Shown one piece after another: positions 557 to 37,849 of a stretch of DNA of 64,000 bases; positions within the stretch are counted from its first letter, which is position 1, and each line of letters begins with the position of its first letter. The notes under the pieces are model-generated. The model did no database searches and was not told where the DNA came from. It was given only the letters and a program-made list of their open reading frames with translations. This stretch comes from Gyrodactylus bullatarudis (lineage: Eukaryota; Platyhelminthes; Monogenea; Gyrodactylidea; Gyrodactylidae), in NCBI GenBank assembly GCA_012064415.1, contig SSNU01000321.1, forward strand, positions 62,001 through 126,000, given 5' to 3'. The position numbers and the translations under genes are program-made.

Positions 557-990
557 TTAACCCTTAAAGTCCCACTGGGTTATTTCTATCACATATCATT
601 TTAGCAACTCATTATTATTTATTTATTTATTTGAACCTCAGAAAATACTTCGTTTGTCCCCATTCGATAGGAAATTTATTAATATCCTGGAATACGCAAA
701 GATCTTGGCTCTATCATTCTAGAGAGTTGATTTCTTTCAAAAAATTATTTTTTATTTAACACGATTTTTTGAAAACCTACTTCCCAGTGTCATAGGTAGA
801 AAGTAAGTTAACTTTTATCGAGTAATCATACCTGTAGAATTCAAATATGCAATCGCCTGAACTCAATCTGCTGAAGCTACATAAATAGCCTGTTTTTGGA
901 TCAAAAAATGGCCCATTCTGAATCAAAAATAATTGCATTGAAACAACTGTAGATTCGTAATCAGCGTATTCACAAACCATGGGATAGACA
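557..990 (-). repeat. TTAA-flanked MITE, family T1, truncated
   Basis: The copy starts at a TTAA (557-560) followed by CCCTTAAAGTCCCA. It is the inverted counterpart of 45886-46346: both share the stretch around TTATCGAGTAATCATACC, the TTTTTTGAAAAACCTACTTCC-like segment and the AATCAGCGTATT segment. Homology stops near 990, so the other terminal repeat is missing. The 67-codon minus-strand frame inside is not a gene. TTAA targets and CCC termini are typical of piggyBac-mobilised MITEs. Confidence 0.65.
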
Positions 991-2378: not shown

Positions 2379-3670
2379 TATGACTAACCGGATGAAAAAT
2401 GTTGAGTTTTTTGTAAAAATAGTAGATTCTCATTTCCATTTCAAATAGCTTCGTTTCATAATGAATTCTTGAAGAGTTTGATTATTATGAAATGGATTAA
2501 CCTCCATATCAATTTGATGAATGACTTATTTGATGACCGTTTAAATTATTCAATGTCAATACCTGCTCAATTTTACAGTAGGAAATTTCCTTGTGAATTA
2601 CTCAAGTTTCTTACATGCATTGGGTAAAATTACTAACATCTCGTTTCATTTACTCGTATGAAACATCGCTCTCATGGTTAGACAATACCCATTCTTTAGG
2701 GAAAAATATGAAAATGTATGCATAAATGGTCAAAGTTCAAAGGTTACCTCAACAAAAAAAGCTTCCTTAACATACATCGCCTACTCAAAGGGGGTAAAGA
2801 ATGAGTGAGCAGACAATATTCATGTTGGGGTCGTGCATCTTCTCTTTAACCTACTCTGTATTATTATTATTTTATGAGAAAAAGAATTTTCATTTATAGA
2901 ACAATGATATCATCGAAACTCAGTAAAGTGTATCAACAAATGAAGAAAAAAGTTGCTTAATTAATTTACACGAAGAAAAGAATAGAACATCGAGCGTAGA
3001 GTAAAAAAACAAAAATTTTCTCCAACTTTTTATTTTTTGCTTGAAATGGTATCTTCCTAATGTATTGGGTTTCTCGTCTTTTGTTGTCTCTCTTTTGGTA
3101 CACTGCTTCTGACTAATACAACTTGTACTGTTTTCTAGTATAGTTTTTTCGATTATAATTTAAATTCCATTCTTAGCTAGAAAGGTTAGAGAAAGTTTTG
3201 CCAATTTGTCAATGTACTTTAGGATGAATCCAGATCTTCAAATTTTCACTTCAAGAAAAGCTCATTTGAAATCACACTTGATTTGGGGGCTTCAAACGAT
3301 TTTTTTGACTTCAAAGGTTGAATTTTATTCAATACGGTTTGGGATCAGAGAAAATTGTAATTTTCAGAAAGAGTTAGATAATGTAAAAATATCTAAATTA
3401 AATATTGTGTTAAATTTTAGTGTTTATTTTTCCAAATTTTAATTTAGCGCTCATCAACTGATTATTTACCACCCTCTTGCAAGGGATTCGTTTTCATGGT
3501 CATCGATAATTAAAAGACAAACACGATTCCAAGTAAACTTTGAGAGAAATAAGAGGGGGCAACAATTCTCTAATTCAACCCTCTGACTTATTATTCTTGT
3601 AATAGCAAGATTTTATTTGATTTATATCGAAGTGAAAAAATAAATTTATGAAAAATAAATTCGAGTCGTA
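2379..3670. other. Intergenic AT-rich DNA
   Basis: A right-hand terminus of palindromic family F1 (TTGAGTTTTTTGTAAAAATA, then TTCTCATTTCCATTTC) lies at about 2402-2445. A short piece at 3546-3575 resembles the arm of the palindromic element at 62.7-63.2 kb. No gene is supported. Confidence 0.4.
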
Positions 3671-3675
3671 TTTAA

Positions 3676-3757
3676 CCCTCGCTTTGGATATGGGGGTTTA
3701 TACACCCCCATTTGTATTGAAACTCCCATAAGCGAAATTGAATATCCAGAGCGAGGG
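3676..3757. repeat. 82-bp TTAA-flanked hairpin MITE
   Basis: The element is bounded by TTAA at 3672-3675 and 3758-3761. Its ends are CCCTCGCTTTGGATAT and ATATCCAGAGCGAGGG, 16-bp inverted repeats with one mismatch. Inside is a second hairpin, TGGGGGT...ACCCCCA (about 3691-3711). The TTAA duplication and CCC terminus match piggyBac-type non-autonomous elements. It has no coding capacity. Confidence 0.8.
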
Positions 3758-17087: not shown

Positions 17088-17095
17088 TATAAATA
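17088..17095 (+). promoter_or_regulatory. TATA box of microprotein gene A
   Basis: TATAAATA, 39 bp before the ATG at 17127. This spacing implies a 5' leader of only about 5-15 nt. Confidence 0.7.
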
Positions 17096-17126
17096 TCAAT
17101 AGTTTCGAGTAATCTTTTTCAACAAC

Positions 17127-17210
17127 ATGAAATGTGAAGGTTGTTGTGATGCCTGTTGTACCAGAGGCGAAGGAGGATTTATATTCCTTCTGGATGATAA
17201 CTTTTGTTGA
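17127..17210 (+). CDS. Microprotein A, 27-residue Cys-rich peptide
   Basis: Complete intronless ORF beginning MKCEGCCDACC and ending FLLDDNFC. It has six Cys (C3, C6, C7, C10, C11, C27) and a glycine-rich middle (GEGG). The tail D-D-N-F-C is shared with genes C and D, the head with genes E-G. The TATA box is at 17088 and AATAAA at 17215-17220, five bases after the stop. The start is fixed by the only ATG after the TATA box. There is no signal peptide, so the product is probably cytosolic. Paired and triple Cys could bind metal or form disulphides, but no family is recognised. Six relatives lie in the next 12 kb. Confidence 0.8.
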   Translation: MKCEGCCDACCTRGEGGFIFLLDDNFC

Positions 17211-18100
17211 TTTGAATAAATAATTTTATTAAAAGTTTAAAGTATTTTCAACTCTGTTCCACTACAATTCAAAGCTTATATTTACTAAGGTTAATATTAT
17301 TTAATAAATAATATTTATTCTTTTGATAGTACAGTTAGTCGGGAAGTAAACGATAACAGCTTGAAACTTATTGCATGCCTTCCTTAAGCTAATTAAGAGA
17401 AAGATGAGAATTTACAATTCTTGCAAAATACTCAATATTTCAATGGTTCTATTTATGTAAGTTTTTGAAAATTTTTCCACTAATTAAACCTTAAATTAAC
17501 CTTACTACTTAAAATTTTTTAAAACTAATCTGTATTGAGAGAGAGTTAACTTTATAGCGGCGTTGTGCGATGAAAAAAATCAAAGTTGCACAGAAAAATG
17601 AAATAAAATTTTAGAAAACATTTGTTTGAGTCAGTTATGTTAATTTTTCGCTGAGTTTTTAAATTGTAATTTCTGTGAAAAGTTTAGAAAAATACACGAA
17701 AGTCAAATGAATTCTAAAATAATTGAAACTAGTCAGCTCATGGCTCAAGAGAACTCCATAAAACTAGGATGGTAAATCTAACTAAAAGATAATTATTATT
17801 TAAAATATTATTATAATTATAATATGCTTGAAAAATATCCTAAAAAGGGATTACGGGGTCATTTAGAATAATTGGCTCATTCTGAAAGTAAAAGTGAAAT
17901 TAATTTAACTAAATGCAAGCAATATTGGTGATATTTCTCTTAGTTTGATCTAAAATGGATAAATAAACACTGATAATTTAAAAATGTCTGAAAAAACTTT
18001 CTTTTCAAACATGTTAATCATTCAGAATATCATAGTTTCTAGAGATATATTCAAGTTGAAATTCCTGAGATTTTTCATAGTTTCAGCTTCTAATTGGAAA
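17211..18100. other. Spacer between microprotein genes A and B
   Basis: AT-rich. Apart from the AATAAA of gene A nothing is recognised. Confidence 0.4.
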
Positions 18101-18107
18101 TAACAAG

Positions 18108-18115
18108 TATAAATA
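18108..18115 (+). promoter_or_regulatory. TATA box of microprotein gene B
   Basis: TATAAATA, 35 bp before the ATG at 18143. Confidence 0.65.
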
Positions 18116-18142
18116 TTGTCAGGTAAAGAGGCATTTTCAATC

Positions 18143-18214
18143 ATGAAGAAATGTCCAGGTTGTTGCTGCTGTGATGATGGGGGCGGAGATTTGTTTTTCT
18201 TGGAAATGTTCTGA
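18143..18214 (+). CDS. Microprotein B, 23-residue Cys-rich peptide
   Basis: ORF beginning MKKCPGCCCCDDGGGD, with five Cys (C4, C7-C10) and a short hydrophobic tail LFFLEMF. It is the most divergent member: the usual CDGG core appears as CDDGGG, and neither the DNFC nor the MGDG tail is present. It keeps the family layout of TATA box (18108), immediate ATG, no intron, and AATAAA at 18234-18239 shortly after the stop. Function unknown. It was assigned to the family by the Cys cluster plus Asp/Gly run and by position. Confidence 0.7.
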   Translation: MKKCPGCCCCDDGGGDLFFLEMF

Positions 18215-18563
18215 ATCCTATTTGATGTTATTTAATAAAAAATTATTTCTTTTACAACTGAATAATAATATCATTCAAAAGAGAAACATGGAGCGATATG
18301 ATAATTCAAGTAAAACAAGTAGCAAGAGCTAAGTAAATAACATGAAAGAAACCAACCCTGGATTATGATAATCTCGAAAACCCACATTTCGATAAACATT
18401 CCCCACATGAGTTTTATCCATGTAATTTATGGAAAAGACTGAAGATTGAAATTCCCACAAAACTTAACTTGAATGGGATTATTTTAGGTTGTGTGAAAAA
18501 ATCTTTCAACTTTCGATTTTGAATCTGTTATGTTAGGGCACAAAATATAATGAATAGTGCAGA

Positions 18564-18712
18564 ACCTATACTTACAAAGGTTGACTAGAAATATTTCGTT
18601 CTAGGTGCTTAGGTAATATATCCCACAGGAACGTCTTATTTGGTAACGTATGGGATATATTACCTGAGCACCTAGAACGAAATATTTCTAGTCAACCTTT
18701 GTAAGTATAGGT
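18564..18712. repeat. Foldback element, about 65-bp arms, copy 1
   Basis: ACCTATACTTACAAAGGTTG at the left is the exact reverse complement of CAACCTTTGTAAGTATAGGT at the right. Pairing continues through CTAGAAATATTTCGTTCTAG almost to the loop (about 18629-18660), with one or two mismatches. It would form a very stable hairpin. A partial relative lies at 22611-22690. Both copies are preceded by GAATAGTGCAG. Confidence 0.8.
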
Positions 18713-19222
18713 GTATTGTATTTCTAGTCAATAAATATAAACTATACACGAAAAGATTCAGTGATATCTGTAGAATTTGTTAATCGATTGATTTTTCAAA
18801 TAATCTGTCATGAATTTTACTGACTCTCAAATTCGAGCCATATATCATTAGTGATACAGCGTCAAAAGCTCTCAAATTGATGAAAAGAGGTCTTGGTTGA
18901 GTTGTTTCAATGTCTACGATTCAAAAATGTTATGGCTTTTTCAAAGATCTCGAGTTTTCATCAAAAACTTGTAAACCAGATTTTTTAACGACTAGAGAAA
19001 GATTTGAGCAGATGAGATGAGTCATTAGATCACAGAAAAATCGATTTATTTTCTCTAATATTGATTTTAGTTAATTCTAGCATTATTTTTAAAACAACAT
19101 TTGTAAATTATGCAAGAATTTCTTTCTTGGGAATGAAGAAGTATCTAATAAACTCTTTTTAGAGAAAACAATTAAAGAATTCTTTACAAATTTATGATAT
19201 TCTGAAATAATTGAGTACACTT
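18713..19222. other. Spacer
   Basis: No supported feature. The polyadenylation signal for gene C is unclear; the nearest minus-strand AATAAA is at about 19045. Confidence 0.35.
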
Positions 19223-19306
19223 TCAACAAAAGTTGTCATCCATCAGGAGTAAAAGACCTCCCCCACCACCATCACAACAGCATCCATCACAGCAGGCGTC
19301 ACACAT
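19223..19306 (-). CDS. Microprotein C, 27-residue Cys-rich peptide
   Basis: Minus-strand ORF beginning MCDACCDGCCCDGGGGG and ending MDDNFC. It has seven Cys at positions 2, 5, 6, 9, 10, 11 and 27. It is closest to gene D: of 27 codons, ten differ, five of them silently, and every Cys is kept. The TATA box is 58 bp upstream. Unlike most relatives there is no consensus AATAAA within 100 bp of the stop. Probably soluble and intracellular, since there is no signal peptide. Biochemical role unknown. Confidence 0.8.
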   Translation of the reverse strand: MCDACCDGCCCDGGGGGLLLLMDDNFC

Positions 19307-19356
19307 GTTTCTAATTTGATTTCTAGACTTTGACTTATTCTAAACCGTAGATAATA

Positions 19357-19364
19357 TATTTATA
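19357..19364 (-). promoter_or_regulatory. TATA box of microprotein gene C
   Basis: TATAAATA on the minus strand, 58 bp before the ATG. Confidence 0.65.
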
Positions 19365-19369
19365 TCTCG

Positions 19370-20099
19370 TAAGATGCTCTATGACATGCAGTAAACACGT
19401 TGACTAAGAAAATATTCCAAGTTTTTTAGTTTGATCGAAATGTAACAGTCTCATGTGATCAAATCTTTCTTGTTTATTAATAGAGCATTTCTAGACTTTG
19501 TCTACAGAAAATATTCTTGAAGGGGATAGAATTTCCATTTTTTATTAGAAAAATTCTTCAAAAAGGAAATAAATTTCTTAATTTCCCCTCATGGAAGAGG
19601 TCAGTCTCCCAAGTCACGATTGAAAGATGCTAAACCCTTTGAAAAACATAGCTAAACGAAAATAATTTTGAGTTTTATTCTTTCACCTAATTACTTCAAT
19701 TACATCAGGTTCTAAATTCTAAAGGATCGTGTATGACCTCTGATATCGGAGGAGATGAACTACTGGAAATTTAAAAGAGATTTAGGATATTTTTTACTAT
19801 CAAATGTAACATTTTTGAAAAAGCTTAATATCTCTGCTGTTGACCCCGATCAGGACGAAAATTATCCTTATTAAAATTTTATCAAAATGTGTATCCAAAA
19901 TTTTGAAGTGTATAAATTTGGTGATGGTAAAACAAATGTAAGATAATTTTTGCGTTAAATTTTCATGAACAGACTTTAGTAAAAGTTATAGAAGAAGAAG
20001 GAGTCTAGGATTCTTCCAAAAAATATAATATAATCAAGATCTTCTGAAACCAAGAAGCCCACTCTTTCTACTTGAGGAGAAAAATTATTTTAAATTGAT
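19370..20099. other. Spacer with MITE remnant
   Basis: GTATGACCTCTGATATCGG at about 19730-19750 resembles the core of the 81-bp MITE at 48050-48130, suggesting a decayed copy. Nothing else is supported. Confidence 0.35.
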
Positions 20100-20103
20100 T
20101 TAA

Positions 20104-20543
20104 CCCTTAAAGACCCAGAGAAAATTTTTTCAAGGTAAATAGCTGATATTGGAAATTGTGTATGGTTTCAGAATATCCTGATTACGAATATGCAATTTTT
20201 TTCCAAAAACCAACCTTTAGTTTAGGAGTTATTGACCCAAAAATAGCCATTTTTATACACAAATAGCTAAATTCTTTTGAACGTTACTAAAATTTTTCAT
20301 TTCAAGAGATGAATTCTGGTTTCTTCTCTTCGATCTCTGGGAGTGGTTTTTAAAAAAAACGAGACATTTTCAAGTCATAACTTCTCAATACTAAATCGTA
20401 GCTTGATAAGTCCCAGTTCATTCGAAAGAATATTAGTTCTTGTTCAGAAAAGTCGTCAATAAATTATTTTCAGTTTCTTCAAAACAGAATAATGGCTTGA
20501 GAAAGTGACCTGTCCCATATATGACCCGCTGGGGCTTAAAGGG
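20104..20543. repeat. TTAA-flanked MITE, family T1
   Basis: Begins TTAA|CCCTTAAAGACCC (20100 onwards) and ends GGGGCTTAAAGGG|TTAT. The first 12-13 bases of each end are imperfect inverted repeats. The interior, around GATTACGAATATGCAATT, resembles that of the T1 copy at 45.9-46.3 kb. Non-coding. Confidence 0.7.
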
Positions 20544-20795
20544 TTATAAAGGACTTGTTTTTAGGATTTCAACAAGACGAAGAAGATAAGATTTTAAACT
20601 TATTTTTTAAATATATTTTATGTTTTTCAGTCTCGTGTTGGGTAGACTAAAAATAAAATAATTTTGAAGAATTTTTATCTAATCGGTGAAGATAAGATAA
20701 TAATTTATTACAAGCAAACTTGTGTTCAACTTTTTCAAGCTTAAGAAATAGACGAATTAGTTGTCTACAACTAGAAATTTCTATACATTTATTTA

Positions 20796-20879
20796 TTAAC
20801 AAAAGTTTTCATCCAAAAGAAGTAAGATACTTCCTTCGCCACCATCACAACAGCAACCATCACAGCAAGCGTCACACAT
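20796..20879 (-). CDS. Microprotein D, 27-residue Cys-rich peptide
   Basis: Minus-strand peptide MCDACCDGCCCDGGEGS... ending LDENFC, with Cys at 2, 5, 6, 9, 10, 11 and 27 exactly as in gene C. The same frame is open 34 codons further upstream, but the TATA box at 20906-20913 lies inside that extension. The start is therefore placed at the ATG 34 bp downstream of the TATA box, matching the family. AATAAA (20788-20793 and again overlapping the stop) follows at once. The + strand 66-codon frame across it is a shadow. Confidence 0.82.
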   Translation of the reverse strand: MCDACCDGCCCDGGEGSILLLLDENFC

Positions 20880-20905
20880 TATTAAATCGTCTAGTTTCTC
20901 ATGCA

Positions 20906-20913
20906 TATTTATA
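20906..20913 (-). promoter_or_regulatory. TATA box of microprotein gene D
   Basis: TATAAATA on the minus strand, 34 bp before the chosen ATG. It rules out the longer reading of this frame as the main product. Confidence 0.7.
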
Positions 20914-20919
20914 CAGGTA

Positions 20920-22130
20920 AAAAAAGAAATGCATGATCTAAATATTTCTCTGACCTCATGACACAAGCTACTACTATTCACAACAAGTCACATTAGAAAT
21001 CAGCAAGTTGTAGAAATATTGAAAAAATGTTATCCTACCTACGCTTCCTAGCCGATTAAGTAGTCTATTATTGCACGCCCAATTTTATAATTTTGACCTG
21101 ATTGGCCTAAATTTTTTATGATTGATTATAAGCCTGTATTCATTTGAAATAGAAATCGTGAAATAATCCAAGAAAATTCACAAAAAACTATACCCAATGA
21201 AATACCAACCCTGATCAACTTACAAGTTGGGAAGGAGATTTTATACTTTTATTTTGACAAACTTTTCCATTAGTAAGTAAAACTAAGCCTCGTAACTATC
21301 GATTGTATTTTTATGCATATCTTTTCAAATAAATGTTATCGCTCTATGTCAGTGTCAATGTTGATGACGATAAAGTATTGTATTTTCATGAATTTTCCTA
21401 CTAAGATTTATAAGATAGAAAGGAAGAGGTTGTATGATGAAGCTTAATTATTGATTCAATGTTTCAAATGTTTCTTCTTCTATCGTAACGCATATATATT
21501 TAAATCGATATACTGCCTTTTTATATTCGTGCATATGAGTGTAATATTGAATAAATCAAATTAATGATCTAAGCTTTTGATCAGATAAACTTTGAAGAAT
21601 AATCATTGCATCTTAGATGACTGAAATTAATGTGAAGTATGCTACTAACTGTATCAAGAAACTGTAGAAAACGATCTCAGATGATTAACAAGAATGAACT
21701 AGGTTATCGTATGGCCAAAGAGATTCTGAAGCACTAAATAAATGATTGAAGTAATTAAAAAATACAAGGAGATAAATCAATGAAAAACCATCCCGATTAA
21801 TAAAGGAAAATTTGTCTTTGAGGAGTGGTAGACTTTTTGATCTAGCGGCATGACTTCCCAGGAAAAGAATAATAGTCCTGAAAGCCGATGTCCTGATGAT
21901 AATCCACATGAAAAATTTGAAAGATTGAAGAGTTGGCCCGAGTATTTAACAATTTGGGTTTACTTATGAATAATCGAAATCGATATTCATCAAAATAAAT
22001 ATTGAATTATTGTACTATACGAGAGATTTTTAATAAGTTAATTCATTTTAAAATAATGATGAAACATGGTTTCGGTATGCAAGCTCATTTTTTCTCATTT
22101 CTCCACAAGGAATTTAAACTTTTTGTTTGC
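20920..22130. other. Spacer between genes D and E
   Basis: AT-rich. The 74-codon minus frame at 21.7-21.9 kb has no supporting signals. Nothing else is supported. Confidence 0.4.
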
Positions 22131-22162
22131 AATTTTTATTTATTAAAACAGTGGTAAGAAAA

Positions 22163-22243
22163 TCAGCATCCATGGTAGCCGTCACCCATCATGAAAATCA
22201 TTCCTCCGTTACCACCATCACAGCAGCATCCATCACATTTCAT
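22163..22243 (-). CDS. Microprotein E, 26-residue Cys/Gly-rich peptide
   Basis: Minus-strand ORF MKCDGCCCDGGNGGMIF... ending GYHGC, with Cys at 3, 6, 7, 8 and 26. Compared with gene F, eight of the first 24 codons differ. Seven of these changes are silent and one is Tyr to Phe, a strong sign that the peptide itself is under selection. Gene E reads two residues further (Gly-Cys) before its stop. TATA box 22294-22301; AATAAA at 22135-22140. The hydrophobic run MIFMM is flanked by glycines. Function unknown. Confidence 0.85.
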   Translation of the reverse strand: MKCDGCCCDGGNGGMIFMMGDGYHGC

Positions 22244-22293
22244 GGTTTAAACGGTTTTTGAGATTATCTGATGTCCAATTCGAGACTGAATTA

Positions 22294-22301
22294 TTTTTAT
22301 A
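22294..22301 (-). promoter_or_regulatory. TATA box of microprotein gene E
   Basis: TATAAAAA on the minus strand, 51 bp upstream of the ATG at its near edge. Confidence 0.65.
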
Positions 22302-22610
22302 TCAAATCATAATACAATGATATCAATAATCTCCGTTATCTCTCCATATCTTTATCTATTATGAGTGCAGGCTGATCACGAGAAATCAAATGATTTTCAT
22401 GTGTAATGATAAACGAAACCAATTTAATAACTAACTGTTCAGTTTTTTAATGTTGAAGCTAATCTCGATGAATTTTGGAATTTATGTAAATAGGTTTTAT
22501 TGAGCTTTTCAATAATTTATGTTTTATAAATGTAGAATTCTAACATTGAAATAATCGGACGAAATATTCCAAAATCAACTTTCGATATAATAATACAAAT
22601 GAATAGTGCA

Positions 22611-22690
22611 GTACCTATACTTACAAAGTTTAACTAGAAATATTTCGTTCTAGGTGCTTAGGTCGTATATACGTCTTATTTGGTAAAGGA
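22611..22690. repeat. Half of foldback element, copy 2
   Basis: Matches the left arm and loop of 18564-18712 (ACCTATACTTACAAAG to GTCTTATTTGGTAA), but the right arm is replaced by unrelated sequence. GAATAGTGCAG occurs just before it and again at about 22889, so a repeat flanks the segment. Confidence 0.65.
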
Positions 22691-22796
22691 TTAGCCCATG
22701 CCACTGAATGTTACAGCTTACTAATGGATCCCACCGAGACTGGTACAAAAGAAACTTACAAAGCATTTAGAAATAATTTAAGTATACATAGATAGT
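22674..22796 (+). pseudogene. Short open fragment of unknown origin
   Basis: About 40 codons are open to a TAG, reading ...KGLAHATECYSLLMDPTETG and ending NNLSIHR. The composition is coding-like, but there is no start and no homologue in the window. It continues directly from the foldback loop, so it may be a remnant of the internal part of the larger parent element. Confidence 0.25.
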
Positions 22797-22899
22797 AGAC
22801 ATATACGCTCAATCCCCTCGTCCAACATCCCATGCAACTCGGATTAATTCTATATATTAGTTCGTACCCCTAGGGTTTTGCTAACTAATGAATAGTGCA

Positions 22900-23230
22900 G
22901 AATATGGAAGTAATCCGAGTTGTTTATATAAACGATTATATAAAACGATTGAGAGGTTAGGTATAATGACAGAATTCTACGTTATTGCCTACAACTCGAA
23001 ATGAAATGAATAATAAATCTCAGTTTTTAAGGAATCTTTGGCAATATATATATGACAACTTTTCTGGTTAATGAAAGATATTTTTTCAAAATTGCATTAT
23101 CAATCTGTATTAGTTTAGAAGAGTGTTTAAGATAAAGCAATCTCGTTCTAAGCAAAGTTGAAAGGTACCACCAGTTCCTCCCATAATTTAACGATTTAGC
23201 ACTGTTCTATTTGAATTAGCCTAATCAATG
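22900..23230. other. Spacer
   Basis: Nothing supported. Confidence 0.35.
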
Positions 23231-23243
23231 ATTAGTAATCATT

Positions 23244-23572
23244 TGGGCCTCAAAATTGGTACCAAATGAAATAAAAAGCAGTATCTTATAAATTGAAAAA
23301 TAAGAAGAAAATATTACGCTGAAGAAAATTTAAGAGATTTTGAGAAAAAATAGTACTTCACAGTAAATTCTTGCAAAATTTTAAAGTATTCAGATCTTGT
23401 GTCATCAAAATTTCAGATTTTTTGTCAATTTTTTCCCCCATTTAACTGTTATAGCGCATATTTTACAAAATAAATCCCATAGATGGGCAGATTTTTTCTT
23501 CAGATTATTGCAACTTAGCCAGTCCTTTGTTTAGAGTAAAAATATACCAAAATTAGTACTTTTTTGAGGCCC
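23244..23572. mobile_element. Mutator-like MITE with 11-bp target duplication
   Basis: Ends are (T)GGGCCTCAAAATTGGTAC and GTACTTTTTTGAGGCCC, imperfect inverted repeats. The element is flanked on both sides by TAGTAATCATT (23233-23243 and 23573-23583). A 9-11-bp duplication is typical of Mutator-like transposons. The 329-bp interior has no ORF. Confidence 0.7.
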
Positions 23573-23583
23573 TAGTAATCATT

Positions 23584-24745
23584 GAGCTTGGGACAAAATT
23601 CTTGAGTTCAGAGTATTAATAAACAGGGATAAATACAAAACGTGTGTAGAACGTTTATCCTTAAATTCTACAAACTGAACATCAGAAAGAAGAATTAAGC
23701 ATAAATTTAGTAAAATTTGCGGGACATTAGCTGCCTTATTTCCTGAAAAAATTCCTTATTAGTAAAATTTTTTTTGAATGAAAATTTATTGAAAAATCTT
23801 CTTTTTTTGGAAATGTACAGAATATACCTTCTAGTTATTGATGATCTCTCTTTTTATAACTATCCCTCATAAAAAATTTATTAAAATAAAGTTATTCTCG
23901 ATGAATTTTACAAAATTTTAATTTTTTCATCAGGGTATCAAAATTGGAGTGTGCGATTCTCATACACCAAAACTGATACACAACTGTATTATCAATAGAC
24001 AAAGAAACAAGTAATGGTTGTAGAGATTCGAATCAAGCAATATTTTTCAGAATCATCATTAGACAAAGGAAATATTTACTCTTATTTATTTTTATGATAA
24101 AACACTCCATTTACGTGCAAAAGTCTACTCATTATTTTTCGATCATTTTTACTGCTTGTAAATTGATAAATGAAGGGCTTTTTCAATAAAAGAATAATTA
24201 TTTTCTTTGTCTAATGATGATCCTAATTCTTCTCATACCTTGAGATCAACAAAAAGAATTGCGCTAGCTCAAGATTTAAAATTCAAACATTTTTTTTCTT
24301 AAATCAGTAAAAGTGTACATTTTGAATCAGTTACCAAAAATCCTGATACCTTGTAGATATTTGTAAAAATCATGATAAACTGTGAAAATTACAAAAAAAT
24401 CAATATATATTGAATATACAATTCACACACAAAGAAATGAGCCAATAATTTTTGGCCAAAATTAAAGTATTTCTGAAATTCTATTCAATTCAAATTTCTG
24501 TTTTTGCAACTTTTAAGCTCAAATTCTTATCGATTTCAAAGATTTTAAGCAATTCGATGTTGAGAGGCTATCATCAGACAAAGAATTCGAAATTGACGAT
24601 CGAGTTTAAGAGAAACTTCTAGAAAAAATTAAACTTCTTTTGGATCATTTTCCTTCGTGATAATCCAAAAAATTCAAATGGTTTAAATTTTAAGGTTCTT
24701 CTTAGGAAAAATACGCTTTTATCTTGAAACAAAAACAAAAGATTT
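23584..24745. other. Spacer
   Basis: AT-rich. Short words such as TAGACAAAG recur, perhaps from old F1 elements. Nothing firm. Confidence 0.35.
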
Positions 24746-24774
24746 AATTTTATTCAAATAAAAAAGTTCAAGTT

Positions 24775-24849
24775 TCAATGGAAGCCATCACCCATCATGA
24801 AGATCATACCTCCGTTTCCACCATCACAACAACATCCATCGCATTTCAT
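24775..24849 (-). CDS. Microprotein F, 24-residue Cys/Gly-rich peptide
   Basis: Minus-strand ORF MKCDGCCCDGGNGGMIF... ending MMGDGFH, with Cys at 3, 6, 7 and 8. Its protein is identical to the first 24 residues of gene E except Phe for Tyr, while the DNA differs at eight codons. TATA box 24890-24897, AATAAA at 24749-24754. It lacks the C-terminal Gly-Cys of gene E, so the last Cys is not essential to the family. No signal peptide or intron. Confidence 0.85.
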   Translation of the reverse strand: MKCDGCCCDGGNGGMIFMMGDGFH

Positions 24850-24889
24850 CTTTTTGGCTTGTTATAATTTTCAGTCTCGACCAAATTAT

Positions 24890-24897
24890 TATTTATA
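24890..24897 (-). promoter_or_regulatory. TATA box of microprotein gene F
   Basis: TATAAATA on the minus strand, 41-48 bp upstream of the ATG. Confidence 0.65.
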
Positions 24898-25148
24898 CAT
24901 TTTATTCTTTAGCATTTCATTTCATTCTCTATTACCACACAAATTCAGAATATCATCATAATAAATTGATGAGTGCATAATATGATGATACAGATAGATT
25001 ATTACAGATAATTCATCACGAGGAATTATCGAATGAACGATTAGTCTCTCCATCTCTCTGTTTTTGTCATATGACGATGACTAACTTTTTGGCTGGCTGA
25101 ATGGAATAGATTGCCATCTGAAATTAAAAATGAAACTAGTGTATACAC

Positions 25149-26085
25149 CTAGTTAATATGAAGATGGGAATTTATCATTTTTACAAAATTCTTATATTTT
25201 TCATCAAGAAATCGAATTTGATCAAGACTTTTTGGAATCTAGATCATGAGGCCCTCTTTCACGGTACGGAGAAAAAAATTTAGAAAAAGGTAGCGCCAAA
25301 TTCCTATTTTTTGAACTTAGAGTTGAAAATTTTTGTTGGTTTCAATGTGAGAGAGTGATCAAAAGTTGATTCTTAGGATCACAATTAGTCAAAGAAATTA
25401 TATATGCTGAATCTGGTTTTAAGAATCCCCCCATAATCGTGTCAAAATCAAATTTTGATTTTTTCATCATTTTCCCTACTTGAAAGTCGATGAAATTTGA
25501 TATTTCAAGGTCCCAGAAAAATGACAAATTTATCAAAATTTTTATTATGATCATCGGTTTTTTTTGTCTTATTGTGTTCCTAAAACTCAAATTTTGATCA
25601 CTCTTTCACATTGAAATCAACAAAAATATTCAACTCAAAGTTCAAAAAAATGGGAATTTGGCGCTACTTCAAGATTTCAAATCAGCCGTAGTTTCCTTAA
25701 AAATTGATATTAAAAAATTTTTTTTTCTCTGTATACTGATATCTCTTGCCTCATGATATAGATTCCAAAAAATGTTGATCAAATTCGATTTCTTGATGAA
25801 AAAATAAGAATTTTGTAAAAATCATAAATTCTCATTAGTTTTATAATAAAATTTATTAAAACTTAGGTCAATATTAGAATTCTCAGCCATGGTCATCCAA
25901 ACGTTTCGACGGTGATTGTCTTCACACGCCTTCTTTTTTTGACAAACTTTTCGTACCACTGAAGAAGGCGTGTGAAGACAATCACCGTCGAAACGTTTGG
26001 ATGACCATGGCTGAGAATTCTAATATTGACCTAAGTTTTAATACATTTTATTATAAAAATAAATTCTCATCTTCATATTAACTAG
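25149..26085. repeat. Palindromic element F1, interrupted by a foldback
   Basis: Left end CTAGTTAATATGAAGATGGG; right end CATCTTCATATTAACTAGC. Long inverted stretches include CATCAAGAAATCGAATTTGA with TCAAATTCGATTTCTTGATG, and AGAGTGATCAAAAGTTGA. The right end is separated from the rest by the insertion at 25836-26060. No coding capacity; the 82-codon frame inside is a by-product. Confidence 0.7.
25836..26060. mobile_element. Foldback element inserted in F1, about 95-bp arms
   Basis: Almost perfect hairpin: arms about 25840-25935 and 25962-26057, sharing for example GTTTCGACGGTGATTGTCTT with AAGACAATCACCGTCGAAAC. AAATTCTCAT occurs immediately on both sides (25826-25835 and 26061-26070) and fits a 10-bp target duplication. 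Removing the insert restores a normal F1 right end. Degraded relatives are seen at 54.87-54.97 kb and 58.95-59.14 kb. Confidence 0.8.
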
Positions 26086-26205
26086 CTTTAGATTTCTGTC
26101 ACTCCAGGACAATCTCCCACATTCTCAACATGTAATAGAATAATCTTTTTACAACAAACCAAAGTGTAAAAAGTATTGAAGAATGCTGTCGATTAAACCG
26201 ATTTT

Positions 26206-26861
26206 AAACCTAATTGACATGAAGATGAGATTCTCATCATGAGAATTTACTATTTTTACAAAAAACTCAATATTTATTTCCAGAAAGTCAGGAAAAAATT
26301 TATTCTTCGAATAAATAAGAAAATAAAATAAGCCAAAAAGGTGTGGAAATTAAGAGCATAAGAGAAAGAATTCGAATTTGGCAGTGGAGGTAAAAGGATT
26401 CTACTGTTTTCAAGAAAAAATTAAACTTTGAGATTTTGAATCTTTCCTCCTCGTGATTATCGATAAATTCAAATATTTCGATTTTCCACAATAATGACGA
26501 ATTTCTGTGATTTTTGGCAGCTGAATTCGCAGTTATGAATTATTATTATCCGAGTTATTACTATAACAATCACTATAATTTTTATAATCCTTGTTTTTTA
26601 AGAAATACTAGACCTTTCTATCCCAATTCTTTTTCTACAGATAGACCAATACAAGCCAGAAGACAACATAGTCAGGTAGCAAGCGAATGCTATTTTTCAT
26701 TAATTATGGTGGGTCTATCTAAAGTTCAATCTTGAAAATCAACTCAAAGTTCAAAAATGTTGGTTTTAGCTCATAGATGCCATGTTCTCTTGAGATCTTT
26801 ATGAAAAATTGGGATTTTTGAAAAAACAGCCTAAATTCTCATCTCCATATAAGCTAGTTTT
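26206..26861. repeat. Palindromic element F1 carrying a gene fragment
   Basis: Left end AAACCTAATTGACATGAAG, right end TTCTCATCTCCATATAAGC. F1-like sequence is interrupted at about 26520 and resumes at about 26725; the interval holds the small ORF described separately. This resembles gene-fragment capture by a transposon. Confidence 0.55.
26535..26735 (+). CDS. Small Tyr/Asn-rich ORF captured in F1
   Basis: 66 codons from ATG. The start region MNYYYPSYYYNNHYNFYNP is rich in Tyr and Asn, then DRPIQARRQHSQVAS leads into a tail that does not match the other copy. A diverged, frameshifted and inverted copy lies at 10.19-10.52 kb. There the sequence after QVAS continues differently, so the 26.5-kb copy is probably truncated and ends in foreign sequence. 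An acceptor-like TTTTTCTACAG precedes ATAGACC, so part of the upstream frame might be intron. Likely a gene fragment; function unknown. Confidence 0.4.
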   Translation: MNYYYPSYYYNNHYNFYNPCFLRNTRPFYPNSFSTDRPIQARRQHSQVASECYFSLIMVGLSKVQS

Positions 26862-26927
26862 ACAATGTATGGTAATTTAAAAAAATTTTAATTAATCCTA
26901 AAATAAATTGAGATAATTATGTAAATA

Positions 26928-27137
26928 TAGTGGTAGAAAAAATAAAAGTATTCACTAGAAATTGTCTCTAAATCACTTATTAAAAGTTATTGAAAATGGA
27001 AAGATGACCCATTCGATAGAGAATATTCGTTTCTATCAGAAATTACTTTTACTCGTACAAAGAGTTCATTCATATTTTCATAAATACAAATTTACAATAT
27101 TTCATTAAATTTCAAAACGAAAAATTAAAAGTATTCA
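26928..27137. repeat. Left terminal inverted repeat of the Tc1 element
   Basis: 210 bp, starting TAGTGGTAGAAAAAATAAAA. Outer and inner direct repeats are at about 26940-26958 and 27121-27137. Confidence 0.92.
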
Positions 27138-27140
27138 CTT

Positions 27141-28145
27141 TTATTTTGTAAAATCTCCCCTACCAAGTACAACATTTAAGCACCTTTTTGACATGGAATC
27201 ATACAAATTTTCTATTATTTCTTTTGGGATTGATTTCCACTCTTCATTGATTCTTTGAACTAGTTCTTGCCTATTTGAATATACTCTCCCTTGGGAATAG
27301 ACTTTTTGAGATAAAATTCCCCACAAGTTTTCAATCGGATTCAAGTCGGGGCTCCTAGCTGGCCATGACAAAATCTGTATCTCATTATCATCAAACCATG
27401 TTCTAGTTGATGCTGATCGATGACAGGGAGCATTATCTTGCTGGAATATCATCTCGCACTTATGAATTTCCTCCTTAAAGGGTAATAGCTGATCCTCAAG
27501 CAATTTCTGATATGAATTTGAATTAAGCTTCTCATCAATAACGACAAGATTTCCAGTTCCTTGCTTTGTGATAAACCCCCAAACCATTACATTGCCTCCA
27601 CCAAATCCTCGTTTGATTTTAGTAGGTCTAGGTAGAGACTTGTCAATCCAACAAGAAGAAAGGCCATCAGGTCCATCCAAATTGAATTTTTTCTCATCTG
27701 AAAACATGATTTTACTCCAATCTTGGTTTTGGACAATTTTATCATGAGCCCACTGGTATCTCGATTCCCTATCCTTGATACTTAGATTAGGAACCCTTTT
27801 TGGTCTTCCCCAATAGATATTAGGATTAGTATTCAAATAATTTTGAACTGTTCTAATGCTGACATTCAATTTAAGCTCAGCTTTTATTTGAGAAGCTGTT
27901 GCTTTTTTCTTGATGGCTAGATTGACAATTTTTTTAATCAGGCAATTGGGTATGGATCTCTTTCGGCCTCGCTTTTTCGGATTTAGCTTCTTTTGTTTGA
28001 CTGAAAACAAATTATTAACAGTTCTACATGAGCATCCGATTATTTTAGCTATCTTCCGATTGCTTGAGCCATCTTGTTTTAATTTGTTGACAAAATCTCT
28101 ATCACAGCCTCTCAGCTTCGAAAATTTCAATTTTTTAACGAACAT
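27141..28145 (-). CDS. Tc1/mariner transposase, DD34E
   Basis: 334 residues, full length for the family. It binds the element's ends and catalyses cut-and-paste transposition into TA in the nucleus. Two helix-turn-helix regions lie at about residues 8-48 and 68-105, joined by the basic KKRGRKR stretch (57-63) in the place of the GRPR/AT-hook motif. Catalytic residues are D150 (MFSDEKKF), D237 (FQQDNAPCH) and E272 (LNPIENLWG), with 34 residues between the last two. The glycine-rich box GFGGGNVMVWG is at 180-190. The stop lies just outside the left inverted repeat. No frameshift or internal stop, so the gene is probably functional. Confidence 0.97.
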   Translation of the reverse strand: MFVKKLKFSKLRGCDRDFVNKLKQDGSSNRKIAKIIGCSCRTVNNLFSVKQKKLNPKKRGRKRSIPNCLIKKIVNLAIKKKATASQIKAELKLNVSIRTVQNYLNTNPNIYWGRPKRVPNLSIKDRESRYQWAHDKIVQNQDWSKIMFSDEKKFNLDGPDGLSSCWIDKSLPRPTKIKRGFGGGNVMVWGFITKQGTGNLVVIDEKLNSNSYQKLLEDQLLPFKEEIHKCEMIFQQDNAPCHRSASTRTWFDDNEIQILSWPARSPDLNPIENLWGILSQKVYSQGRVYSNRQELVQRINEEWKSIPKEIIENLYDSMSKRCLNVVLGRGDFTK

Positions 28146-28261
28146 TTTTGAACTATGTTTAGTTTATTGGCGATAATATATTTGAATGTACTGTGTAAGA
28201 GATATAATGAAAATTCAGAATTCAAAGTCTAATTCTAACTGGGAAAAAAGGTGATTGAAAC

Positions 28262-28471
28262 TGAATACTTTTAATTTTTCGTTTTGAAATTTAATGAAAT
28301 ATTGTAAATTTGTATTTATGAAAATATGAATGAACTCTTTGTACGAGTAAAAGTAATTTCTGATAGAAACGAATATTCTCTATCGAATGGGTCATCTTTC
28401 CATTTTCAATAACTTTTAATAAGTGATTTAGAGACAATTTCTAGTGAATACTTTTATTTTTTCTACCACTA
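28262..28471. repeat. Right terminal inverted repeat of the Tc1 element
   Basis: Reverse complement of 26928-27137 with no difference found on reading through all 210 bases. Confidence 0.92.
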
Positions 28472-28473
28472 TA

Positions 28474-29280
28474 TATATATTTTCAACACTTAAACCTATC
28501 TCGAAAGCAGGTTCTTTTTTATGAACTTTGTATCGCTATTCTTTAGCTGAAAATACACAATAAACACAATTTTATGTTAAAGTGTTCTTCACACATGGCA
28601 GAGATGTTGAATAGAAGATAATCTATTTAGATCATTCTGGAGACTTTATCTGGGTTCTTTAATCACAATGATTCATCTACAAAAGTGATAACAATAAGAA
28701 TAATAATTTATCTACTGAATTCAACTTCAAATTTAAAGGTGTGTAGATTTTTATCACACTTGCATTAATCACCTTTGAATTACTTTTTTTTAATATTATT
28801 ATTATATTTTTATCTCTAAGATTCTATGTAAGTTTTTATTGTATATCCATCTGATCCATTCAAAAGTGCTGTATGAATTTAATCATTCTTTTCATAAAGT
28901 ACTGGCTTGTAGGGAATTTTTTCACTCAAGTATTTTAAAACTGAAGTTAAGAATACATTTTATAAATCAATTCAGCTCAGAATAATTGGATAGAATTTAT
29001 AGGATCGAATGACATGCTGATGATGGAATAACTGTGGCAGGCTTAACAACCAGAGCTCTAATACCCAAGTTAATTTCAAAATCCAAATAAAACCTCATTA
29101 AACAGGCAGGATAATTTATGTTTATGGTATCCCTGAGAATTTTCAAATTGAGTTCATCTTTCCAACTATAGAAAGAACCCCCTGGTAATATTAAGATGAA
29201 TGAATTGAAAGATATTTTTTTCGCTTAGCAATGATTGTGACGATAACCACATGATAGATACTGCTCACGTGTAAGAGAAG
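28474..29280. other. Spacer
   Basis: AT-rich. Nothing supported. Confidence 0.4.
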
Positions 29281-29286
29281 AAAACA

Positions 29287-29294
29287 TATAAAAG
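29287..29294 (+). promoter_or_regulatory. TATA box of microprotein gene G
   Basis: TATAAAAG, 57 bp before the ATG at 29344. Confidence 0.7.
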
Positions 29295-29343
29295 TCTAGA
29301 GGTTGAATTGAAAAGTTATTTAGAACATTTTTTTCAAGAAATC

Positions 29344-29430
29344 ATGAAATGTGATGGTTGTTGTGATGGCTGCTGTTGCGACGGTGGCGGACACGGAATG
29401 ATCTTCATGATGGGTGACGGATACTACTAA
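29344..29430 (+). CDS. Microprotein G, 28-residue Cys/Gly-rich peptide
   Basis: ORF MKCDGCCDGCCCDGGGHG... ending MMGDGYY, with six Cys (3, 6, 7, 10, 11, 12). It combines the long Cys cluster of genes C and D (CC-DG-CCC) with the MIFMMGDG tail of genes E and F, so it links the two subgroups. TATA box at 29287. No exact AATAAA is close; AATATA variants lie about 25 bp past the stop. No intron or signal peptide. It lies beyond the Tc1 insertion from its relatives and on the opposite strand to E and F. Confidence 0.83.
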   Translation: MKCDGCCDGCCCDGGGHGMIFMMGDGYY

Positions 29431-29664: not shown

Positions 29665-29952
29665 ATGCCTTCTTATAAGTATGATCCACATATTTTTAGA
29701 GGTCCTAGGATGTACCACGTTCGACGGCGAAGGACAAGTCAATCCGAAGATCTACTCATTGCTTGTAGCCTAGCCGGGGCCTGCTGTTTAGTGCCATTCA
29801 CATCCACAGTCGAGACTCTAAGGAGCGGGCACATTACTCATGTTAACGAGCTGATGTGTTCAAAGAGGTTCCCCAGGAATAATTGGAGCTGTTTAGGAGC
29901 AGCGATTGTTGGCTATACCATTAAGTTCGTCGGTTCTTTTTTAAAGAGTTAA
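29665..29952 (+). CDS. 95-residue protein of unknown function
   Basis: Intronless ORF starting MPSYKYDPHIFRG, then a basic patch (VRRRR, 19-23). There are two hydrophobic stretches, LIACSLAGACCLVPF (30-44) and CLGAAIVGYTIKFVGSFL (76-93), which could be membrane segments. Base composition is less AT-rich than the flanks. A decayed copy at 7.08-7.41 kb shows it belongs to a dispersed family, so it may derive from a mobile element or be a duplicated host gene. The ATG context is AGATATGC. No TATA box or nearby AATAAA was seen, leaving expression uncertain. No family recognised. Confidence 0.5.
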   Translation: MPSYKYDPHIFRGPRMYHVRRRRTSQSEDLLIACSLAGACCLVPFTSTVETLRSGHITHVNELMCSKRFPRNNWSCLGAAIVGYTIKFVGSFLKS

Positions 29953-37145: not shown

Positions 37146-37190
37146 GTAAGCAAAGATAAATTATTATCAAATAGAGTTATAAATATGCAG

Positions 37191-37438
37191 TTACTTCAGA
37201 TGATCCATCAACCCTGATCCGAAGTAAGCTAAGAGGGGAAACGGGTTTCCTCTATCAAGATAAAGAATTATTTGATCCGACACAGTATGAGAAAAACGTT
37301 CCATATAACTTATTTATCAACAATAGATATAATGAGTTAGTGAGGGATCTAGACATGTATCCTGGTGAAAGGGTTGGTCGCAATCAAAGACTTCGTTGGG
37401 AAAGGACCCAGCGTAAAGAAGAAATTTGCCGAAGATGA
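37191..37438 (+). CDS. Terminal exon of paralogue P1
   Basis: Acceptor AAATATGCAG, then TT plus 81 open codons to TGA, with AATAAA at 37463. Shared with P2: RSK-x-RGE-x-GFLYQD near the start and RYN-x3-RDL-x-MYPGER further on. Across the conserved blocks most nucleotide differences between P1 and P2 are silent (AGT/AGC, GGG/GGT, CTC/CTT, TAT/TAC, CAA/CAG), so this strand and frame are real protein. The tail is basic (RLRWERTQRKEEICRR). P1 has about 12 residues between the blocks not shared with P2. Function unknown; earlier exons unresolved. Confidence 0.7.
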
Positions 37439-37619
37439 AATATTTTATTTTAGTAATTTCTCAATAAAATATACTTTTATCTGGAATTAAATTTATCATT
37501 AATCAAATCCATATTACTAGAAAATTCATTTATAAATTAATTTAAATGATTGAAGCAGGGGATGCATGCATATATCTCAACGATCTGATAGTAATTAGTT
37601 TAATCATGATTAAGTTCAG

Positions 37620-37849
37620 TTGCATTCTACGATCAACCTAGTCTGTTTAGAAGCAAATTCAGAGGTGAAGCTGGATTCCTTTACCAGGATGACAAACCTT
37701 CGGAACCTACTATGTATAGCTTGGGAACAGACAGATATAATATGATAATCAGAGATCTTAGAATGTACCCTGGTGAAAGAGCCAGAATATATCAACTGTT
37801 CATCAATAGTCATTTATACATGAAGAATGGCAAAGTGATAGATACATAA
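37620..37849 (+). CDS. Terminal exon of paralogue P2
   Basis: Acceptor TTAAGTTCAG, TT, then 75 open codons to TAA, with AATAAA at 37874. It starts in the same phase as P1 and aligns with it: RSKFRGEAGFLYQDDK and RYNMIIRDLRMYPGER. It ends NGKVIDT, unlike P1. Only 181 bp separates the stop of P1 from this exon, so P2 is a tandem duplicate, or both are alternative last exons of one gene. The 65-codon minus-strand frame opposite is a shadow, because the P1/P2 substitution pattern fits the + strand. No family recognised. Confidence 0.68.

What the first reader, a model, noticed from the sequence alone, without database searches (positions are those of the whole stretch)
17127..29430. Cluster of seven TATA-driven genes for 23-28-residue Cys/Gly-rich microproteins
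Seven tiny intronless ORFs (17127+, 18143+, 19223-, 20796-, 22163-, 24775-, 29344+) share an M-K-C or M-C start, CC/CCC clusters and a C-D-G-G core. Each has its own TATA box, and five have AATAAA within about 30 bp. They are below the length cut-off of gene finders. Tight Cys spacing suggests metal binding or disulphide-packed peptides; no known family came to mind.
Basis: partly seen in the sequence, partly recalled or inferred. Interest (0 to 1): 0.92.

Follow-up and report, generated by a model that had tools for sequence, protein, structure and literature searches.

The report
Flatworm cluster of cysteine-rich microproteins
A small-genome flatworm, probably a fish-skin parasite of the Gyrodactylus group, carries a cluster of seven real but tiny genes for 23-28-residue cysteine- and glycine-rich proteins of no known family; they may be sulphur cross-linkers of its hard parts, but that role is unproven.

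Summary
Seven intronless ORFs encode related 23-28-residue Cys/Gly-rich peptides. All 7 have TATAAA[A/T] 34-58 bp before the ATG (11 of 424 other short ORFs do); 5 of 7 have AATAAA within 30 nt of the stop; both together occur in 5 of 7 against 0 of 424. In the two closest pairs homology starts at the ATG and ends within 6 nt of the stops; one pair differs by 7 synonymous and 1 non-synonymous change. So the peptides are very probably translated and selected. Two relatives lie at one other locus (C100), one with an apparent signal peptide before the same core. No Pfam or PDB relative was found. The mitochondrial contig uses the flatworm code; with a 77-Mb, ~30% GC genome this points to a gyrodactylid monogenean. 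Gyrodactylus hooks are reported to be sulphur-rich and keratin-like, so my favoured, unproven reading is a convergent analogue of keratin-associated proteins: cytosolic peptides that cross-link hard parts through disulphides. Metal binding and secretion are the main rivals. The genes are secure; the function is not.

The parts
17088..17220 (+). Gene 1: TATAAAT 17088-17094, CDS 17127-17210 (27 aa MKCEGCCDACCTRGEGGFIFLLDDNFC), AATAAA 17215-17220
18108..18239 (+). Gene 2: TATAAAT 18108-18114, CDS 18143-18214 (23 aa MKKCPGCCCCDDGGGDLFFLEMF), AATAAA 18234-18239; shares CPGC..CCC and GGGDLF.L with the signal-peptide relative on C100
19223..19364 (-). Gene 3: TATAAAT 19358-19364, CDS 19223-19306 (27 aa MCDACCDGCCCDGGGGGLLLLMDDNFC); no AATAAA within 60 nt
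20788..20913 (-). Gene 4: TATAAAT 20907-20913, CDS 20796-20879 (27 aa MCDACCDGCCCDGGEGSILLLLDENFC; the upstream in-frame ATG at 20906 directly follows the TATA box and is not the likely start), AATAAA 20788-20793
22139..22301 (-). Gene 5: TATAAAA 22295-22301, CDS 22163-22243 (26 aa MKCDGCCCDGGNGGMIFMMGDGYHGC), AATAAA 22139-22144
24749..24897 (-). Gene 6: TATAAAT 24891-24897, CDS 24775-24849 (24 aa MKCDGCCCDGGNGGMIFMMGDGFH), AATAAA 24749-24754
29287..29430 (+). Gene 7: TATAAAA 29287-29293, CDS 29344-29430 (28 aa MKCDGCCDGCCCDGGGHGMIFMMGDGYY); no AATAAA within 60 nt

Best explanation
A duplicated family of genuine microprotein genes (seven here, two more on contig C100) in a flatworm, most likely a gyrodactylid monogenean. 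SHOWN: each window gene is one short open frame with a TATA box close upstream, most have a close poly(A) signal, and the ORF is the conserved unit. INFERRED: each gives a very short mRNA with a very short 5' leader (TATA-to-ATG spacing puts the start site roughly 1-30 nt before the ATG), translated in the cytosol. INFERRED, main functional claim: the acidic, Cys/Gly-rich peptides stay reduced in the cell and become intermolecular disulphide cross-linkers of a hardened structure, working like keratin-associated proteins of hair; the best candidate structure is the sulphur-rich, keratin-like haptoral sclerites (hooks) by which such worms hold their host.
For: Gene reality: 7/7 TATA vs 11/424; both signals 5/7 vs 0/424; shuffles mean 0.03. 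In the two closest pairs the blast block begins at the ATG and ends within 6 nt of both stops (one search is similar). 22163-/24775-: 7 synonymous vs 1 non-synonymous difference, codon-position differences 0/1/7, 0 of 20,000 neutral simulations as extreme. Specificity: reversed-pattern controls gave 0, and 3 where one mismatch was allowed. Function (indirect): Cys 4-7 per window peptide, odd in 4 of 7 (5, 7, 7, 5), with spacings C-x2-CC-x2-CC, C-x2-CCCC, C-x2-CC-x2-CCC and C-x2-CCC, which fits cross-linking rather than one fold. No signal peptide in 8 of 9 genes, judged by eye. Single-exon, clustered, Cys/Gly-rich, as described for mammalian KRTAPs, with an independently evolved KRTAP-like cluster in lamprey teeth (PMC12101200, passages). 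Gyrodactylus sclerites: high sulphur and 'keratin-like', as cited in PMC5428946 (passages). In another flatworm class (cestodes) the oncospheral hook primordium appears within the oncoblast cytoplasm (PMC5040746, passages), which would suit leaderless proteins. The same genome has a tandem pair whose second exons give open frames of 137 and 144 residues with 56 and 54 Cys (C163), resembling an ultra-high-sulphur class.
Against: No expression or localisation data. The sclerite link rests on the organism's biology, not on these genes; the species is inferred, not named. One C100 relative has an apparent signal peptide, so at least one member probably enters the secretory route; and the cestode paper describes extended Golgi regions at the hook-forming centre and says rostellar hooks originate differently from oncospheral ones (PMC5040746). 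PMC5428946 also cites collagen for the Gyrodactylus ventral bar and chitin or resilin-like protein for diplozoid sclerites, so 'keratin-like' is not the only reading of monogenean hard parts. No keratin or filament partner was sought. The peptides are much smaller than KRTAPs. For 19223-/20796- the excess of synonymous changes was not significant in the simulation (1,545 of 20,000 as extreme), though codon-position differences were 3/2/8. Many of the 36 pairs are saturated at synonymous sites, and two distant pairs gave dN/dS of 0.85 and 0.91. In one of five pairs (24775-/29344+) weak similarity runs about 30 nt past the stop.
Confidence: 0.38

Rival explanations
1. Metallothionein-like microproteins: the CC/CCC clusters and acidic residues bind Cu(I), Zn or Cd in the cytosol for storage or detoxification.
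For: Length and Cys number are like the ~25-residue, 7-Cys fungal copper metallothioneins (recalled). Leaderless peptides. Metals are reported in the sclerites and vitellaria of a diplozoid monogenean (PMC5428946, passages). Many KRTAPs show sequence similarity to metallothionein (PMC10029157, passages), so composition does not separate the two.
Against: No Pfam family, metallothioneins included, matched any of the 7 peptides or the two C100 relatives. Phe and/or Tyr occur in 7 of the 7 window peptides and in both C100 relatives (read), whereas metallothioneins usually lack aromatics (recalled). A conserved hydrophobic C-terminal half is not expected. Cys number varies from 4 to 7 between copies.
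Confidence: 0.22
2. Secreted peptides (gland, adhesive or surface products): the C100 signal-peptide gene shows the original form, and window members use an unconventional route or an unseen leader exon.
For: C100:72464-72607(-) encodes MLKAIYQGIVLVTLVWIFFVSSAVA followed by CPGCCEGCCCCDGGGGDLFLLGI, by eye a typical signal peptide with an A-x-A site directly before the family core.
Against: 8 of 9 genes start with M(K)(K)C and show no hydrophobic leader in the 25 upstream in-frame codons printed. A TATA box 34-58 bp before each window ATG leaves no room for a leader in the same exon. Cys frameworks are not conserved.
Confidence: 0.2
3. Sperm or testis structural peptides, like the small Cys-rich Mst(3)CGP genes of Drosophila.
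For: Small, leaderless, clustered, Cys/Gly-rich; likeness to Mst genes is recalled only.
Against: No CGP tripeptide in any of the 7 peptides. Nothing in the data points to testis.
Confidence: 0.08
4. Chance ORFs or relics of a repeat without a protein product.
For: Low-complexity codons; repeats lie nearby; synonymous excess not significant for one of the two pairs simulated.
Against:: signals, homology nearly limited to the ORF in the two closest pairs, strong synonymous bias in one pair; outside the ORF the five pairs compared share only short matches (E 0.027 or worse) apart from one weak 3' extension of about 30 nt.
Confidence: 0.04

Closest known systems
Mammalian keratin-associated proteins (KRTAP/KAP)
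   Same: Small, Cys- and/or Gly-rich, single-exon genes in clusters made by duplication; no specific fold or sequence motif shared by all (PMC12101200, passages).
   Different: KRTAPs are longer (105-residue KRTAP17-1 is called one of the smallest of its group in PMC10029157). [quoted passage not shown] No Pfam match here; expression in a keratinised organ not shown; one relative has an apparent signal peptide.
[quoted passage not shown]
   Same: A clustered family of small Cys/Gly genes on chromosome 2, some of them added to annotation only in a PhyloCSF study (PMC6886504, passages).
   Different: About 80-100 residues (recalled), mammalian; no direct sequence comparison was run.
Lamprey KRTAP-like genes (KRTAPL)
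   Same: Clustered small proteins rich in Gly and Cys, in horny teeth, evolved independently of KRTAPs (PMC12101200, passages).
   Different: Two exons, also Tyr- and His-rich, slightly basic, masses in the KRTAP range. The C163 pair of this genome (two exons by reading, Cys/His/Gly-rich) is closer to that design than the window genes are.
Fungal 25-residue copper metallothioneins (recalled)
   Same: Size and Cys number.
   Different: C-x-C spacing without aromatics in the fungal peptides (recalled); here CC/CCC with Phe/Tyr and a hydrophobic tail; no family match.
Drosophila Mst(3)CGP sperm proteins (recalled)
   Same: Small leaderless Cys/Gly-rich clustered genes.
   Different: CGP repeats absent here; no testis evidence.

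Membership tests
Keratin-associated proteins (KRTAP) | Single-exon small genes in duplicated clusters | tested here: met
   seven ORFs in 12.3 kb, both strands, each uninterrupted from near its TATA box; no cDNA to prove the exon structure
Keratin-associated proteins (KRTAP) | High Cys and/or Gly content | tested here: met
   Cys 4-7 and Gly 4-8 in 23-28 residues
Keratin-associated proteins (KRTAP) | Sequence match to a KRTAP family model | tested here: not met
   no Pfam family in 7 window peptides and 2 C100 relatives; host is a flatworm by its mitochondrial code. So not filed as a KRTAP; only 'works like' is proposed
Keratin-associated proteins (KRTAP) | No signal peptide (cytosolic; criterion recalled) | tested here: inconclusive
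   8 of 9 genes lack one; the C100 48-mer has one; judged by eye, no predictor available
Keratin-associated proteins (KRTAP) | Expressed in, and cross-linked into, a hardened appendage | not testable with these tools
   no expression or proteomic data
Metallothioneins | Match to a metallothionein family model | tested here: not met
   Searches (7 window peptides; 2 C100 relatives): no Pfam family
Metallothioneins | Absence of aromatic residues (criterion recalled) | tested here: not met
   Phe and/or Tyr in 7 of 7 window peptides and both C100 relatives
Metallothioneins | Stoichiometric metal binding | not testable with these tools
   needs peptide chemistry
Secreted disulphide-rich peptides | Signal peptide | tested here: not met
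   by eye: absent in 7 of 7 window genes; present in one of two C100 relatives
Secreted disulphide-rich peptides | Conserved even-numbered Cys framework (criterion recalled) | tested here: not met
   4, 5, 5, 6, 6, 7, 7 Cys; spacing varies
Mst(3)CGP sperm proteins | CGP tripeptide repeats (criterion recalled) | tested here: not met
   none in any of the 7 peptides

The most novel reading that the evidence does not exclude
A flatworm lineage independently evolved a keratin-associated-protein-like system at the smallest scale known to me: disulphide-curing peptides of 22-28 residues, made from near-leaderless mRNAs of roughly 110-155 nt before the poly(A) tail (estimate for the five genes with AATAAA), which, with the ultra-high-sulphur proteins of contig C163, harden the haptoral hooks. 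That would give a first molecular identity for the sulphur-rich sclerite protein, which the papers I saw describe only from staining and elemental analysis.
Probability: 0.22. Interest if true: 0.85.

Novelty: new variant of a known kind. Interest (0 to 1): 0.6.

Why it matters
Genes this short fall below the cut-offs of usual annotation, so a whole conserved protein family can be missed. If the sclerite reading holds, it names candidate building blocks of the hooks that let parasitic flatworms hold on to fish, adds another independent case of sulphur-rich cross-linkers hardening an appendage, and gives specific probes for an open question (what the keratin-like hook protein is). Even without it, the cluster is a clean example of probably translated microproteins with a shared core, of which one relative carries an apparent signal peptide and the others do not.

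Tried and rejected
Family searches of the peptides: PDB with a profile of the 7 and Pfam with all 7 gave nothing up to E=10; Pfam with the two C100 and two C163 proteins and NCBIfam with 4 proteins, 2 of them window peptides, gave nothing up to E=1. Protein database: the 48-aa C100 protein and exon-like frame 37175-37435 shared too few words with anything; a C163 frame had 53 candidates, none at E<=0.001. That database may hold few eukaryotes, so these misses say little about conservation; the 23-28-residue peptides themselves are too short for it. Rfam and tRNA: none in the window. Upstream motif other than TATA: the only 8-mer found (one mismatch allowed) in at least 6 of 7 upstream stretches was also in 31% of 150 random ones, so rejected. 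Pattern was too strict (0 hits) and was replaced. Other genome hits: one search gave 8 places: 5 window genes, 1 C100, and C187 and C431, which are not family (no start-proximal core; a longer unlike ORF). One search gave 8: 4 window, 1 C100, 2 C163 large proteins, 1 C410 unrelated short frame. One search gave 16: 5 perfect (4 window, 1 C100) and 11 with one mismatch, of which one is window gene 18143 and the other 10 are not family; its reversed control gave 3. The peptide searches missed the C100 22-mer, so further divergent members may exist. Spliced-leader acceptor or hidden leader exon: no consistent acceptor seen by eye between TATA and ATG; not tested further. Structure prediction not run: window peptides are under the 30-residue minimum. 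In alignment A1 gene 4 lacks its first Met because I gave a start 3 nt too short.
Full report
WHAT WAS CHECKED. The window is G000:C309:62001-126000 of an assembly held as 77,324,412 bases in 471 contigs. All seven ORFs exist. They encode 27, 23, 27, 27, 26, 24 and 28 residues. The fourth is 27 residues from the ATG at 20879; the longer 36-residue ORF in the listing uses an ATG at 20906 that directly follows the TATA box. The finding's 'C-D-G-G core' holds for five of seven.

MORE THAN CHANCE. Among window ORFs of 20-60 aa, 7 have at least 16% Cys and two CC pairs; by the listing they are the same seven. In 100 dinucleotide-preserving shuffles the mean was 0.03 and the maximum 1. A TATAAA[A/T] between -65 and -30 is present in 7 of 7 family members and in 11 of 424 other ORFs; AATAAA within 36 nt of the stop in 5 of 7 and 37 of 424; both in 5 of 7 and 0 of 424. 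The criteria were set after seeing the genes, and the 424 ORFs overlap in part.

THE ORF IS THE UNIT OF CONSERVATION. I aligned 400 bp upstream + CDS + 400 bp downstream for five pairs. In the two closest pairs the best block starts at the first base of the ATG and ends within 6 nt of both stop codons. In a third pair (17127/19223-) it runs from 3 nt before the ATG to the stop; in the fourth it lies inside the ORF; in the fifth (24775-/29344+) a weak block (72% identity) runs about 30 nt past the stop. The repeat finder, without knowledge of the ORFs, stopped within a few bases of the same borders for the two closest pairs. The pair 22163-/24775- differs at 7 synonymous and 1 non-synonymous position, with codon-position differences 0, 1, 7, and none of 20,000 neutral simulations had as many synonymous changes. 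For 19223-/20796- codon-position differences are 3, 2, 8 and dN/dS is 0.11 by counting, but the codon-wise simulation was not significant (1,545 of 20,000). Many of the 36 pairs are saturated, and two distant pairs gave 0.85 and 0.91. Taken together this makes translated, selected peptides very likely, more directly than any promoter match.

HOW FAR THE FAMILY REACHES. Back-translated patterns and peptide searches of the whole genome found the family in this 12.3-kb stretch and at one other locus, contig C100. There, in L045, lie a 48-residue ORF (MLKAIYQGIVLVTLVWIFFVSSAVA-CPGCCEGCCCCDGGGGDLFLLGI) with what looks like a signal peptide directly before the family core, and about 0.85 kb further a leaderless 22-mer, MKCPGCCECCCGSTAGLIFLAI, first seen by reading the fetched stretch and then matched by pattern. 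Both have AATAAA within 20 nt of the stop; neither has TATAAA[A/T] at -30 to -65 (nearest TATA-like words at -69 and -98). The peptide searches missed the 22-mer, and the tool scores only its best candidates, so the count of nine is a lower bound.

WHAT ORGANISM. The COX1 contig (C13, 14,926 bp with a 127-bp terminal overlap, so about 14.8 kb circular) reads 12 TGA codons through. Against aligned COX1 proteins, 2 of 3 AAA codons fall at Asn (the third at Asp) and 3 of 4 AAG codons at Lys (the fourth at Asp) (alignments, codons): this fits the echinoderm/flatworm code. All 11 code-9 frames of at least 90 aa lie on one strand, and 8 of 10 tested matched mitochondrial families in Pfam, the nad6 match below its curated cut-off (nad2 and atp6 are my guess for the two without a match). 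Paragyrodactylus has 14,517 bp and all genes on one strand (PMC4150975, passages). Gyrodactylus genomes are 67-91 Mb with 31-39% GC, G. bullatarudis 84.35 Mb and 31.26% (PMC12677651, passages). The window is about 30% GC. I therefore read the host as a gyrodactylid monogenean; the species is not shown.

HOW IT MOST LIKELY WORKS. Shown: TATA box, ORF, and in five genes a poly(A) signal, in a span of 126-163 bp. Inferred: with a start site about 30 bp after the TATA box, three genes (spacing 34, 35, 39) would have leaders of roughly 1-12 nt and the other four of about 15-31 nt. The peptides have a Cys/Asp/Gly head and a hydrophobic tail, with ends such as DDNFC or MMGDGY/F. Cys number is 4, 5, 5, 6, 6, 7, 7 in the window and the spacing shifts between copies, which is unlike a single packed disulphide fold. 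I favour intermolecular cross-linking, as for keratin-associated proteins, over metal binding. The structure I would look in first is the haptoral sclerites: for three Gyrodactylus species they are reported to be high in sulphur (Shinn et al.) and suggested to be keratin-like (Lyons; Shinn et al.), both as cited in PMC5428946 (passages; the original papers were not seen). Cestode oncospheral hooks arise inside the cytoplasm of oncoblasts, though with extended Golgi regions at the forming centre (PMC5040746, passages); whether monogenean hooks form inside cells was not checked. The same genome holds, on C163, a tandem pair of genes whose second exons give open frames of 137 and 144 residues with 56 and 54 Cys; these look like an ultra-high-sulphur class. 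None of this is expression evidence.

WHAT SPEAKS AGAINST IT. The C100 signal peptide implies at least one member enters the secretory path. The sclerite link is by organism, not by data on these genes, and PMC5428946 also cites collagen for the ventral bar and chitin or resilin-like protein for diplozoid sclerites. Metal binding is not excluded; many KRTAPs themselves show sequence similarity to metallothionein (PMC10029157, passages).

COMPARISON WITH THE KNOWN. No Pfam or PDB match for the 7 peptides, no NCBIfam match for the 2 of 7 tested, no Pfam match for the C100 and C163 proteins. KRTAPs share single-exon genes, clusters and composition, but no family match here; [quoted passage not shown] Lamprey KRTAP-like genes show that such systems can arise independently (PMC12101200). 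Human SCYGR genes are a cluster of small Cys/Gly genes, some annotated only in a PhyloCSF study (PMC6886504, passages). None of my nine paper searches (a PubMed Central subset) named these peptides, and none was aimed at their sequences, so I do not claim absence from print.

VERDICT. Real genes: about 0.95. Family new to the databases searched: likely. KAP-like cross-linking role: about 0.38. Hook-specific role: about 0.22.

Noticed in passing
L045 4962-5108(-) and 4048-4116(-) (C100): Second family locus: a relative with an apparent signal peptide directly before the Cys/Gly core and, about 0.85 kb away, a leaderless 22-residue member.
   Followed up: yes
L066 about 892-1397(+) and 3222-3680(+) (C163): Tandem pair of Cys/Gly/His-rich genes: a tiny first exon reading MCCCGC..., a GT donor, then a 137- or 144-residue open frame with 56 or 54 Cys; TATA-like word upstream. 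No Pfam match for either; no NCBIfam or protein-database match for the first.
   Followed up: partly
17088-17127, 18108-18143, 20879-20913: TATA-to-ATG spacing of only 34-39 bp in three genes implies almost leaderless mRNAs, which would be unusual for an animal nuclear gene (the judgement of unusual is recalled).
   Followed up: no
26919-28480: Tc1/mariner-like element inside the cluster: DDE_3 transposase ORF of 334 aa on the minus strand and 223-nt terminal inverted repeats 99% complementary, so probably a recent insertion.
   Followed up: no
25835-26062, 25298-25658, 18564-18712: Fold-back repeats with arms of 62-101 nt, 85-98% complementary; a 73-nt stretch at 18549 overlapping the last has a 93% copy at 22598.
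   Followed up: no
37175-37435, 37610-37846: Two exon-like open frames with similar sequence (...RSK.RGE.GFLYQD...YPGER...), apparently a tandem duplicate; no Pfam match for either, and no homologue found for the first.
   Followed up: partly
L062 (C319), frame around 1500: Longer ORF with a KKCC..CCYEKKCPDCCCQRKCCGCCSCGNC stretch after a hydrophobic segment: another Cys-rich protein of this genome, unlike in layout.
   Followed up: no
29665-29952(+): 95-aa ORF shortly after the last microprotein gene (MPSYKYDPHIFRGPRMYHVRRRRTS...), no Pfam match.
   Followed up: no
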